Assembly (NCBI GenBank): GCA_937951345.1
Contig: CALFCF010000056.1
Location: 1-64,000, forward strand
DNA: 64,000 nt
DNA from: an uncultured Granulosicoccaceae bacterium
GTDB lineage: Bacteria > Pseudomonadota > Gammaproteobacteria > Granulosicoccales > Granulosicoccaceae
Direction of reading: 5' to 3'
Within the stretch, counting starts at the first letter, position 1. Each line of letters opens with the position of its first letter. Shown piece after piece: positions 7,321-59,338 of this stretch. A model generated the notes under the pieces. It was not told the DNA's origin. It made no database searches and was given only the letters and a program-made list of their open reading frames with translations. The translations under genes were made by a program, and so were the position numbers.

Positions 7321-8289
7321 ATGGAAGTTCTATTAGCCAACCCGCGCGGATTTTGTGCAGGCGTTGACCGTGCGATTGAAATTGTCGAGCAAGCGCTTGA
7401 ACGATTTGGCGCACCCATCTACGTAAGACACGAAGTTGTACACAATAAGTATGTAGTTGACGGCCTGCGCGACAAAGGCGCCATTTTCGTTGAGGAGCTT
7501 AACGAAGTGCCTGACGACGCTACGGTGATATTCAGCGCACATGGTGTTTCACGGCAGGTTGAAGACGAAGCCCGATCACGTGGACTAACTGTTTTCGATG
7601 CTACCTGCCCACTGGTTACAAAAGTACATATGGAAGTTGTACGGTACGCCAAACTAGGCAAAGAGGTGATCCTGATAGGGCATGCTGGCCACCCGGAAGT
7701 CGAAGGCACGATGGGACGCTACGATACAAGCTTCGGTGGGCGAATATTGCTGGTTGAAACACCTGACGATATTACGTCACTGGTAGTACATCGACCTGAA
7801 GAACTAGCTTTTGTGTCACAAACAACATTATCCGTAGACGACACGTCGGCTGTCATTGATGCACTGAAACTAAAATTTCCGTCGATTGTTGCTCCGCGCA
7901 AAGACGACATTTGCTACGCAACTCAAAATCGCCAGGACGCCGTAAAAGCACTGTGTCAGAAGGCTGATCTTTTGCTGGTTGTCGGTGCTACAAACAGTTC
8001 AAATTCCAATCGCTTGCGCGAACTTGGCGAACGTGCAGGCGTTGAATCTCACCTGATTGCTGATTCCACAGAAATTGATAGCGATTGGCTTGCAGGTAAA
8101 ACCCGGATCGCCGTTACAGCGGGTGCGTCAGCTCCTGAAATCCTGGTACAGCAGGTAGTGGAACGACTGAAACAAGCCGGGGCGACCACAGCGGCAGAGG
8201 AATCCGGAATAGAAGAAACAATCTCGTTTTCACTACCGCGCGAACTACGTCGCGACAGAGAACGCAGTCAAAACACGTTGGGCGATTAA
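7321..8289 (+). CDS. ispH: 4-hydroxy-3-methylbut-2-enyl diphosphate reductase
   Basis: 322 residues, the last enzyme of the non-mevalonate isoprenoid pathway, reducing HMBPP to IPP and DMAPP with a [4Fe-4S] cluster. The three cluster cysteines are present: C12 ([11 protein letters not shown]), C96 (DATCPLVTK) and C198 (DDICYATQN). The substrate-binding histidines H41 and H74 are also present. It lies 122 bases after lspA. A perfect 30-bp palindrome follows it at 8318-8347. Confidence 0.97.
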
Positions 8290-8317
8290 TTGCCAGTTGC
8301 TAATTACCGGGCAATCC

Positions 8318-8347
8318 AGCCTGCTCTATTCATGAATAGAGCAGGCT
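8318..8347. repeat. Perfect 30-bp palindrome made of fused R2 ends
   Basis: AGCCTGCTCTATTCA is followed with no loop by its exact complement TGAATAGAGCAGGCT. These are the two terminal inverted repeats of the 247-bp R2 element (58891-58910 and 59118-59137) joined together with the whole interior missing. It sits between the convergent ends of ispH and the HDOD gene, so it may also terminate transcription from both sides, although no T-run follows. Confidence 0.85.
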
Positions 8348-8380
8348 AGAACTGATTGATCCCAACATCATGCAACCGTT

Positions 8381-9664
8381 CTAACTTGCTTCACGCAAAT
8401 CTGCGCCGTCTTGTGGTTTCTTTGTAAGCGCCCGTTTAATCAGTTCCTCAGGCGATGTAAGGTCAATACCTGCCTGATGTAGTCGGCGCGCGAGCAGCAG
8501 ATTGTTGGCACTGGGGATCGAGCTTTGCTCTGCATCCGGAGATGCTCCGTTTATTGCCAGTAGCGATGCTGTATGAACATCAGCCAGACTGATTTCGCCA
8601 GGGTGATTTCGATACCAGTCACGCGCTGTCATTGAACTGTCAACAAAACCTGCCGGAAAATTCCAGGCCTTCAGAATCCACTGACTGACAATGACCCGCA
8701 GTGTCTCAATACAGGAACGAAATTCCGCTTCATCGGTAATTTGATCAGACAACTTGTTAGCACTGGTGATAATGGCTAATTCACCAATGTCCGATACCAG
8801 CGAATTCAACGCAGCCTCTTCAGGCTGGATATGGTTCATATCAGCAGAAATCTCAACAGAAACTCGCGTTGCCATAAGCGATCGCTTGATAAACTTACGA
8901 AATCGATCCTCTATGATTGGATTGCTGCAGATGATCGTGTTTTCTTTTAGCTGTGCAGTAATTGCCTGAATGGTAGCTTCAACACCCAGACGGGAAATAG
9001 CACCACGCACTGTTTGCACAACCTGATCAGATCCTTCTGTTCGCTGTGATGCGCGAACGATACTCATAGCAAGACCCGGATCCGACTGAATGATATCAGC
9101 AAGTTCAGGGATACCCGCTTTATTGGCAATAGCTTTAAGGATTCGGGTCGAACTTTCACTGAATGATGCAAGCGCAAGCTTTTTCTCAACCATAACCTGA
9201 CGAATATCATCAAAAATCAGATTGTCGAGATCCGATAAGTGAACGTCATTAACAGTAACAGCGTTTTTCTGTTGCTCAGACAACAGAATGTCCATCTGCT
9301 CACGACCAAAACGGGCAATTCTTGCCAATCCCGGCGACTTAATACTCTGGTAAGCAGCTTTGTCTACGAATAACGGCTGTAACGCGTCGGCGGAACCCGC
9401 ACTCAGCGTGCCTACTTCGTCTTTACCGCTGTAAAGGTAAACCGAACCCTCAACCAGAAACATCAGGTAGCGATGCGAGTTCTCCGGCTTTAGCTGATCG
9501 TTACGTTGCATGTGCGCAACGGTCGCCGTTTTGCAGAGCGCCGCACGATTATCCGCGTTGAGCTCGTTCACAGGCGAGGCTTTCGACGCAATGGCAGTAA
9601 TGAGAGCTAGCTCTTCGTTACTTACCGCATTTTTTTCCTGTTTCTGATTGGCTTTACTGAACAC
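8381..9664 (-). CDS. HDOD-domain protein with N-terminal cyclic-nucleotide-binding-like domain
   Basis: 427 residues, probably a signalling protein. Residues about 25-125 look like a cupin-type cNMP-binding fold (HRYLMFLVEGSVYLYSG near 64-80). Residues about 150-345 are an HDOD domain, a relative of HD phosphohydrolases that usually lacks catalysis; the typical opening IPELADIIQSDPGLAMSIVR is present. The C-terminal 60 residues may be disordered or helical. No output domain such as GGDEF or EAL is fused. What ligand it binds cannot be told. It is separated by 145 bases from the next minus-strand gene. Confidence 0.8.
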   Translation of the reverse strand: MFSKANQKQEKNAVSNEELALITAIASKASPVNELNADNRAALCKTATVAHMQRNDQLKPENSHRYLMFLVEGSVYLYSGKDEVGTLSAGSADALQPLFVDKAAYQSIKSPGLARIARFGREQMDILLSEQQKNAVTVNDVHLSDLDNLIFDDIRQVMVEKKLALASFSESSTRILKAIANKAGIPELADIIQSDPGLAMSIVRASQRTEGSDQVVQTVRGAISRLGVEATIQAITAQLKENTIICSNPIIEDRFRKFIKRSLMATRVSVEISADMNHIQPEEAALNSLVSDIGELAIITSANKLSDQITDEAEFRSCIETLRVIVSQWILKAWNFPAGFVDSSMTARDWYRNHPGEISLADVHTASLLAINGASPDAEQSSIPSANNLLLARRLHQAGIDLTSPEELIKRALTKKPQDGADLREAS

Positions 9665-31626: not shown

Positions 31627-32280
31627 ATGCCTTTAGATAATTGGCTGGCATTTGCCATTGCGTCGATCGTTCTTCAGGTAATACCTGGTCCGACAATCCT
31701 TGCCGTTATAAGTTATTCCGTGTCGCATGGCAGGCAAGCCTGTGTTCCACTGGTTGTCGCCGTCGCGCTGGGAGATACTACTGCTGTGGTTGCATCGCTT
31801 GCAGGACTCGGTACGCTGCTGGCAAACAGTACGAGTTGGTTTACGATAATTAAAGTGATTGGTGGAATCTACCTGCTTTATCTGGGTGCGAAGATGATCT
31901 TCGAGAAAGCGAGCAATGTAACCAACAGTGCAAAGGATACGGAAGGTAGGTCTCAGCCCAATAATAGAAACACATCAACATCAGGCGTTTTTCTGAATAC
32001 TTACGTCATCACGGCTTTAAATCCGAAAGGCATCGTTTTCTTTATCGCGTTTCTGCCACAATTTGTCTCTGATGATGCCAACATCTACAGGCAACTTTTC
32101 ATCATGGCAGTTACGTTTGTAATACTGGCCACCATCAATGCCTTTTTATATTCTTTTTTCGCAGCATCAATAAGATCGGCATTGCAATCCGCAAAGATAA
32201 ACCGATGGTTTAATTTTACAGGTGGATCATTACTTTGTGCAGCAGGTCTGTGGACGTTGATTGCCAAACGGCAGCTCTAG
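31627..32280 (+). CDS. LysE/RhtB-family exporter
   Basis: 217 residues from ATG 31627 (MPLDNWLAFAIAS); an upstream in-frame start at 31561 is unlikely because it gives a charged, non-family N-terminus. Six hydrophobic segments. The family signature VLQVIPGPTILAVISYSVSHG begins near residue 16. Members export amino acids such as lysine, threonine or homoserine; the substrate here is unknown. The TAG stop codon is also the first three bases of an R2 repeat. Confidence 0.9.
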   Translation: MPLDNWLAFAIASIVLQVIPGPTILAVISYSVSHGRQACVPLVVAVALGDTTAVVASLAGLGTLLANSTSWFTIIKVIGGIYLLYLGAKMIFEKASNVTNSAKDTEGRSQPNNRNTSTSGVFLNTYVITALNPKGIVFFIAFLPQFVSDDANIYRQLFIMAVTFVILATINAFLYSFFAASIRSALQSAKINRWFNFTGGSLLCAAGLWTLIAKRQL

Positions 32281-32412
32281 CCAGCTCTATTCACGAAGGC
32301 GAAAACAGTGACACTGAAAACTAAGCAATTTCCAGTTAGACAAGCAGTTTTAGCGTCGCTGTGGGTGTTCGCACACTGTTTTCTTTTCGCCACCAGTGCC
32401 CGTCTGCCGTCG
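32278..32412. repeat. R2-family element, partial copy with one end
   Basis: Begins with TAGCCAGCTCTATTCACGAA, the R2 terminal repeat, and follows the complete copy (in reverse orientation) through CTAAGCAATTTCCAGTTAGA to CGTCTGCCGTCGC, where similarity stops. The second inverted repeat is missing. It fills the gap between two convergent genes and begins on the stop codon of the exporter gene. Confidence 0.88.
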
Positions 32413-58730: not shown

Positions 58731-59338
58731 TTAATCGCACGGTCGGCCTGGTGCCGGAATTCCTAATCCGCTGATGTGATCGCGAAAAGTCAGGTTTTGT
58801 ATTTCTTCACCCACGTATTCTTGTACTTCAGTATTACATCGTTTGCGTACACTCAATATCCAAACGATTTAATTGGCATCGCTCGTTAACTAGCCTGCTC
58901 TATTCATGAAGGGTTCGCCACCAGAGTCAGGCTACCTAAGCAGGTCGCACGATTGAGCGAAATTCGTAGAAATCTACGGGTTGAGCTCAATCGAGTGAGC
59001 TGCGACGGCAGACTGGCACTGGGGGTGAAAAGAAAACAGTGTGCGAATACCCACAGCGACGCTAAAACTGCTTTTCTAACTGGAAATTGCTTAGTTTTCA
59101 TTGTCACTGTTTTCGCCTTCGTGAATAGAGCAGGCTAGCTGTAGCCTTCTGAATCCTTCGGCGCTCAGAATCTTTCGGCATTAACTGGGTATTTTGCAGC
59201 AACTCGGATGCGATCAGGTCTGGTTGGTTTGCTTGTTTGCCGGTCTGCAATAGAGTGTTACATCAAACATGCGCCATTGCGGTTCTACATAGCGGTTCTA
59301 ATAACCCACAAATAGCTAACCATTAACCGCCTACAGAT
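58731..59338. other. Intergenic region around the complete R2 element
   Basis: 608 bases. Apart from the R2 element at 58891-59137 I see no gene, RNA or terminator. Sequence on both sides is unremarkable. Confidence 0.5.
58891..59137. repeat. R2-family element, complete 247-bp copy with terminal inverted repeats
   Basis: Bounded by TAGCCTGCTCTATTCATGAA (58891-58910) and TTCGTGAATAGAGCAGGCTA (59118-59137), which are complementary at 19 of 20 positions. CTAG occurs at both outer edges. The interior has no transposase frame. On the minus strand a 67-codon frame (59107-58904) encodes KQFPVRKAVLASLWVFAHCF. Parts of the element occur at 1-148 and 32278-32412 and its fused ends at 8318-8347. It looks like a non-autonomous mobile element. 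Confidence 0.9.

What the first reader, a model, noticed from the sequence alone, without database searches (positions are those of the whole stretch)
8318..8347. Perfect 30-bp palindrome is the two ends of R2 fused, with no interior
The 15-bp arms are exactly the R2 terminal repeats joined head to head. This could be the footprint left by loss of the element interior, or the minimal mobile form, or the ancestral palindrome from which R2 grew. It lies between convergent genes, where it may double as a bidirectional terminator.
Basis: seen in the sequence. Interest (0 to 1): 0.52.

Follow-up and report, generated by a model that had tools for sequence, protein, structure and literature searches.

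The report
Collapsed remnant of a mobile repeat
The perfect 30-base palindrome is most likely what is left of a 241-base non-coding mobile element after the copying machinery skipped its folded interior, one of twelve such remnants found in this bacterial genome; the kind of event is known, but the repeated, predictable collapse is a neat case of how short genomic palindromes can arise.

Summary
The palindrome is real (window 8318-8347) and far beyond chance. Its arms are the ends of R2, a MITE-like repeat. The element proper is CCTGCTC...GAGCAGG, 241 bp, between 4-bp CTAG-type target duplications, so the arms are AG/CT of the target site plus 13 bp of a 21-bp terminal repeat.

In this genome I found 77 R2 elements with both ends: 60 full-length, 3 with a nested insert, 2 of 120-123 bp, and 12 'stem-only' forms of 26 (x1, this one), 37 (x7), 39 (x2) and 43 bp (x2).

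The 26-, 37- and 43-bp forms are exactly what deletion between TGAA, TTCG and TTCGCC direct repeats at the base of R2's folded interior would give; they are three of only four products with 4 bp or more of homology among 410 possible. A sister genome with a different terminal repeat carries its own 43-bp form at the same repeat. I therefore read the palindrome as a slippage (nearly-precise-excision-type) scar.

It is not a canonical terminator (no T-tract), there is no sign that the 26-bp form moves, and it is not the ancestor of R2. R2 belongs to a wider hairpin repeat family (17 of 115 genomes searched) with strong covariation and no Rfam match.

The parts
8318..8347 (.). Perfect 30-bp palindrome as reported
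   Evidence: unique within 3 mismatches in own genome and 39 relatives
8320..8345 (.). Stem-only R2 remnant proper: 26-bp core CCTGCTCTATTCATGAATAGAGCAGG
   Evidence: element boundary set by 60 full-length copies with CTAG-type flanks
8316..8319 (.). Left flank CCAG, read as a target duplication with one substitution from CTAG
   Evidence: 37 of 60 full-length copies have CTAG on both sides, 40 of 60 identical 4-bp flanks
8346..8349 (.). Right flank CTAG, target duplication
8333..8336 (.). TGAA, the direct-repeat unit at which the deletion junction lies (one copy left of two in R2)
   Evidence: junction analysis
7321..8289 (+). ispH/LytB gene, upstream convergent neighbour
   Evidence: PF02401
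8381..9664 (-). HDOD-domain gene, downstream convergent neighbour
   Evidence: PF08668
58894..59134 (+). Full-length R2 (241-bp core), parent type of the remnant; folds into a three-way junction
58890..58893 (.). CTAG target duplication, left of R2
59135..59138 (.). CTAG target duplication, right of R2

Best explanation
A full-length 241-bp R2 element sat at a CTAG site in the 91-bp gap between ispH and the HDOD gene. R2's two ends pair into a 21-bp stem, and its interior folds into two further hairpins, so a single strand forms a three-way junction (shown by folding and covariation, not by experiment). The terminal repeat itself contains the self-complementary string TTCATGAA, so the two inverted ends also carry it as a direct repeat (TTCATGAA on the left, TTCGTGAA or TTCATGAA on the right). 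During replication the nascent strand stopped at the base of the fold, unpaired, and re-annealed to the second copy (inferred). This removed 215 bp, everything between the repeats, and left one TGAA at the centre of a now perfect palindrome. The step may have been direct, or through the 43- and 37-bp intermediates seen elsewhere in the genome (43 to 37 by TTCG repeats, 37 to 26 by TGAA repeats). The product has no further such repeats in its stem, so it is a stable end point: a scar with no shown function.
For: Size series: 60 full-length, 3 with a nested insert, 2 of 120-123 bp and 12 stem-only forms (26 x1, 37 x7, 39 x2, 43 x2) among 77 two-ended copies (first pass). Junctions: the 26-, 37- and 43-bp forms match the consensus ends with 0 mismatches, with overlaps TGAA, TTCG and TTCGCC. 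Only 4 of 410 distinct stem-only products have 4 bp or more of homology, and these three are among them; P = 3.5e-6 for 3 or more of 5 distinct products if homology did not matter. Fold of R2: z -12.1 as DNA, -12.9 as RNA; 23 of 92 pairs changed on both sides and kept in 6 sequences. Independent event: sister genome G001, whose repeat reads CCCGCTTTATTCA, has a 43-bp stem-only form at the same TTCGCC repeat, CTAG on both sides. Mechanism known in print: slippage between direct repeats at a hairpin base (PMC4134008, abstract and passages); nearly precise excision of a Tn10-related transposon, cited second-hand in PMC12524634 (passages). Not a fusion made by an assembler: k-mers of 17-25 bases across the centre occur in none of the other own-genome loci fetched.
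Against: No genome with a full-length R2 at this exact locus was found, so loss in place is inferred. G001 has the same convergent gene pair without an element, which fits later insertion as well as loss. The two 39-bp forms have only 1-2 bp of homology, and one fits poorly (3-4 mismatches). The left target duplication is CCAG, not CTAG. No stem-only form was found among about 54 two-ended relatives in 119 loci of other genomes; those loci were chosen for intact hairpins, so this is weak. The count of junction classes treats the seven 37-bp copies as one class and does not show seven separate events.
Confidence: 0.83

Rival explanations
1. Stem-only forms are themselves mobile: one ancestor collapsed, and the mini-element (26-43 bp, two abutted terminal repeats) was copied to new CTAG sites by the R2 transposase.
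For: Seven 37-bp copies at unrelated sites (four identical in all 37 bases on one strand or the other), nearly all with CTAG on both sides.
Against: The 26-bp form is unique. The 37-bp form is also the product of a 4-bp repeat at the stem's base and can arise from the 43-bp form, so recurrence explains it as well. The sister genome's short form arose in its own lineage. Ends separated by 0-17 bp would have to be cut as a pair, which seems sterically unlikely (inference).
Confidence: 0.12
2. The palindrome is a selected bidirectional transcription terminator or mRNA-end stabiliser between convergent genes.
For: Strong hairpin (-20.4 kcal/mol as RNA). By a crude ORF scan 8 of 12 stem-only forms lie between convergent ORFs and none between divergent ones, against 8 of 22 convergent for full-length copies.
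Against: No T-tract on either strand here; at most 5 T in 8 bases at any of the 12 sites, usually 0-3. The terminator scan finds nothing at 8318-8347. The excess is not significant (Fisher two-sided P = 0.15). Insertion at gene ends is tolerated anyway.
Confidence: 0.1
3. The palindrome is the ancestral seed, into which the R2 interior was later inserted.
For: A 215-bp insert with a TGAA duplication would look the same at this one junction.
Against: The 26-, 37- and 43-bp forms would each need another insertion, with a different duplication, giving the same R2. R2-like elements with the same layout occur in 17 of 115 genomes, while the palindrome is unique.
Confidence: 0.03
4. Self-templated repair (quasi-palindrome correction or template switch) turned a short form or one R2 end into a perfect palindrome, instead of simple slippage.
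For: TTCATGAA in the left end is self-complementary and could prime a switch. One 123-bp copy has two right ends, which looks like a switch at GAAAACAGTG.
Against: It needs an extra step; deletion explains the 26-, 37- and 43-bp forms with one rule.
Confidence: 0.1

Closest known systems
Nearly precise excision of Tn10 and related transposons (slippage between short direct repeats inside the inverted ends)
   Same: Interior lost, a short palindromic piece of both ends and the target duplication kept; end points in short direct repeats at the base of a fold. Read second-hand in PMC12524634 (passages); the hairpin-slippage model in PMC4134008 (abstract and passages).
   Different: Here the element is a 241-bp non-coding repeat, several nested products occur in one genome, and the event is inferred from sequence only.
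QMITE2 of Coxiella burnetii (MITE with small, REP-like truncated forms)
   Same: Full-size MITE with terminal repeats plus many smaller palindromic remnants in the same genome, often in 3' untranslated regions (PMC5896051 abstract and passages; review PMC10969869 passages).
   Different: Small QMITE2 forms have lost their terminal repeats and duplications; here the ends are kept and the interior is lost.
ERIC/RU-1, Correia/NEMIS and similar bacterial MITEs
   Same: 100-200 bp, terminal repeats, target duplication, transcripts fold into long stem-loops (PMC2229807, passages).
   Different: CTAG target instead of TA; three-way-junction layout; found here mainly in Granulosicoccaceae.
REP elements and RAYT-linked palindromes
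   Same: Short (20-40 bp) extragenic palindromes (start of the abstract of PMC3733652 in the listing).
   Different: Flanked by CTAG target duplications and visibly the ends of a larger element; no GTAG-tagged hairpin seen; RAYT gene not searched.

Membership tests
MITE (parent R2) | Terminal inverted repeats | tested here: met
   21-bp ends AGCCTGCTCTATTCAYGAAGG
MITE (parent R2) | Target-site duplication of fixed length | tested here: met
   40 of 60 full-length copies have identical 4-bp flanks, 37 of them CTAG; identity extends to 5 bp in 1 of 54 copies
MITE (parent R2) | Small, multicopy, no transposase gene | tested here: met
   241 bp; 60 full-length copies, 77 two-ended copies
MITE (parent R2) | Autonomous element with matching ends that supplies the transposase | tested here: inconclusive
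   None found: PF13546 (the family I recalled for IS701) 0 matches in the own genome; no transposase-sized pair of ends recognised among fetched loci. Other transposase families were not searched.
Nearly-precise-excision scar | Product keeps both ends and the target duplication, lacks the interior | tested here: met
   left duplication has one substitution (CCAG)
Nearly-precise-excision scar | End points in short direct repeats within the ends | tested here: met
   TGAA for this locus; TTCG, TTCGCC for 37- and 43-bp forms; the two 39-bp forms only 1-2 bp
Nearly-precise-excision scar | Independent of recombinase and transposase | not testable with these tools
   needs genetics
Intrinsic terminator | G+C-rich hairpin followed by a T run | tested here: not met
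   hairpin present, T run absent on both strands
REP | GTAG-tagged imperfect hairpin with a RAYT partner | tested here: inconclusive
   flank is CCAG/CTAG, not a GTAG tag outside the hairpin; RAYT gene not searched

The most novel reading that the evidence does not exclude
R2 is one branch of an undescribed, structure-conserved mobile repeat family of Gammaproteobacteria (CTAG target, about 240 bp, three-way junction) whose hairpin is kept by compensatory change across three families and so acts as a folded RNA or single strand. Because its terminal repeat is itself part-palindromic, copies decay by a fixed series (241 to 43 to 37 to 26 bp) into stable perfect palindromes, which gives a testable route from a mobile element to solitary REP-like palindromes at gene ends.
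Probability: 0.3. Interest if true: 0.62.

Novelty: new member of a known kind. Interest (0 to 1): 0.4.

Why it matters
Short solitary palindromes in genomes are often unexplained or taken for terminators. Here one genome holds the whole series from the 241-bp parent to the perfect palindrome, and the products are predicted by the direct repeats that a part-palindromic terminal repeat creates. If right, other orphan palindromes could be traced to extinct mobile repeats by the same test. The parent family, with covarying hairpins in 17 of 115 genomes and no Rfam match, deserves its own description.

Tried and rejected
Rejected: palindrome as intrinsic terminator (no T-tract); as ancestor of R2 (incompatible junction classes); as assembler fusion (centre-spanning 17-25-mers in none of the other own-genome loci fetched); R2 as a known Rfam RNA (only miRNA models below threshold).

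Led nowhere: phage and plasmid records (no match); exact R2 end in genome contigs (0, though the window's own and very near genomes may be left out there); one viral contig with CCTGCTCTATTCAYGAA, taken as chance, its other end not looked for; PF13546 in the own genome; L348 as an autonomous element (the ORF between the ends does not look like a transposase to me; no family search was run on it). The assignment of ends of the type CC..GG with a 4-bp duplication to IS1380, IS5 or IS701 is recalled only; passages on IS1380 in PMC4133298 and PMC3281130 did not settle it (IS1247 is listed with a 5-bp duplication). Enrichment of stem-only forms between convergent genes: suggestive, not significant (P 0.15); only the 22 of the 30 full-length loci L001-L030 with long flanks were used there.

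Rows dropped: six opposite-strand matches before the pair count (27 of 33 rows kept); the 63 sites without a partner end (contig ends, truncated copies, duplicates) are outside the 77. One entry of the 54 was misplaced (identity 0.295) and fell out of the recount. No paper on repeats or transposable elements of Granulosicoccus was found (0 papers with all three terms); no wider claim of absence is made. The literature search found no paper that I recognised from its listing as describing this case; its papers were read only where cited.

Full report
What is there. The perfect palindrome lies at window 8318-8347. About 6e-5 perfect 30-bp palindromes would be expected in 64 kb, and the next longest in the window is 16 bp. 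Its arms are the ends of R2 (58892-59136). The genome (G000, 4.49 Mb, 115 contigs) holds the 15-mer 72 times on one strand and 77 on the other, 0 for the reversed control. The 30-bp form itself is unique within 3 mismatches in G000 and in 39 other genomes.

True boundaries. Across 60 full-length copies the element is CCTGCTCTATTCAT...CGTGAATAGAGCAGG, usually 241 bp, between 4-bp flanks that are identical in 40 of 60 copies, CTAG on both sides in 37 of 60. A few copies sit in TTAA-type sites. The 30-bp palindrome is therefore a 26-bp core (8320-8345) between CCAG (8316-8319, one change from CTAG) and CTAG (8346-8349). The ends of R2 pair over 21 bp, not 15.

The size series. I took stretches around the repeat ends listed. 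The lists were cut at 100 places, so a few copies may be missing. Among 77 elements with both ends there are 60 full-length, 3 of 385 bp (the one read in full has a nested 140-bp insert), one of 120, one of 123, and 12 stem-only forms: 26 bp (1), 37 bp (7), 39 bp (2), 43 bp (2). So the locus is the extreme member of a class of twelve.

Junctions. Aligned to the consensus ends, the 43-bp form joins at TTCGCC, the 37-bp form at TTCG and the 26-bp form at TGAA, each without mismatch. Of 410 distinct products that keep 8-30 bp at either end, only four have 4 bp or more of homology, and three of them are the observed classes. The chance of 3 or more of 5 distinct products falling there is 3.5e-6. 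The two 39-bp forms join with 1-2 bp and one of them fits with 3-4 mismatches; they do not follow the rule. The TGAA repeat is really eight bases with one mismatch (TTCATGAA left, TTCGTGAA right in 53 of 60 copies) and eight without mismatch in 2 of 60 right ends. This follows from the terminal repeat containing a self-complementary string: inverted ends then also carry a direct repeat.

Fold. R2 folds as a three-way junction with the ends as a stem of over 20 pairs: -73.6 kcal/mol as DNA, z -12.1; -128.9 as RNA, z -12.9. In six sequences from two genomes (four own copies, two types from G001) 23 of 92 pairs have changes on both sides with the pair kept, the outer stem included. The stem-only forms are this fold with the arms removed at its base, which is where slippage between direct repeats is expected by the published model (PMC4134008, abstract and passages). 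Nearly precise excision of a Tn10-related transposon is the classical case (recalled; second-hand in PMC12524634, passages).

Independent event. In G001 (same genus) the related element has a different outer repeat, CCCGCTTTATTCATGAAGG. One site there (L185) is a 43-bp stem-only form with CTAG on both sides and the same TTCGCC junction. In loci of other genomes (119 loci, 707 kb, chosen around intact hairpins) no stem-only form was found among about 54 two-ended copies.

Neighbourhood. The palindrome lies 28 bp after the ispH stop and 33 bp from the HDOD gene's stop. The sister genome G001 has the same convergent pair without any element in the gap, so insertion postdates that split or the element was lost there. 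By a crude ORF scan, 8 of 12 stem-only forms are between convergent ORFs, against 8 of 22 full-length ones (Fisher P 0.15). The hairpin is strong as RNA (-20.4 kcal/mol), but neither strand has a T-tract and the terminator scan finds nothing there. I do not support a terminator role.

What kind of element. R2 meets the sequence tests of a MITE except that no mobilising transposase was found (and loci inspected). A covariance model of its first hairpin matches 17 of 115 genomes: 15 of family f1 (three genera) and one each of two other families of the class. With 27 sense-strand rows, 90.5% of cells pair and 35 of 47 pairs show changes on both sides. That alignment was fitted to the model, which favours the structure. 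Rfam has no match above threshold. In IMG/VR, two contigs carry elements with similar CTAG-flanked ends and interiors that look unrelated by eye, so the ends may be shared by a wider group.

Verdict. A collapsed R2 copy, most probably by slippage in place. The event type is known; the family is new to me and the nested series is clear. The most novel reading, a structure-conserved mobile repeat that decays by a fixed path into solitary palindromes, is open.

Noticed in passing
window 32278-32400 approx.: One-ended, truncated R2 copy in opposite orientation (CTAG then CCAGCTCTATTCACGAAGGCG...), interior lost after about 130 bp.
   Followed up: partly
L048, L057, L135 (own genome): 385-bp R2 form; in L135 it is R2 with a nested 140-bp repeat (GGAACCTCTGATTTATT...AATAAATCAGAGGTTCC) and a TTAG duplication, a second MITE-like family.
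   Followed up: partly
L051:365-491 (own genome C9): A copy of 123-bp core with two right ends and no left end, joined at GAAAACAGTG; looks like a template switch.
   Followed up: no
L230, L232-L235, L253, L241 and others: R2-like hairpins with strong covariation in genera g1-g3 of Granulosicoccaceae and in two other gammaproteobacterial families; no Rfam family.
   Followed up: partly
L351:803-1042 and L353:1055-1241 (IMG/VR contigs): CTAG-flanked elements with ends CCYGSATTATTCATGA but different interiors, which suggests a shared transposase.
   Followed up: no
L218-L228 (own genome): Several stem-only forms abut stop codons: the TAG of the CTAG target duplication ends the neighbouring ORF.
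   Followed up: partly
window 8381-9664: The HDOD gene next to ispH is convergent in some relatives and in the same direction as ispH in others: its orientation has changed within the family.
   Followed up: no
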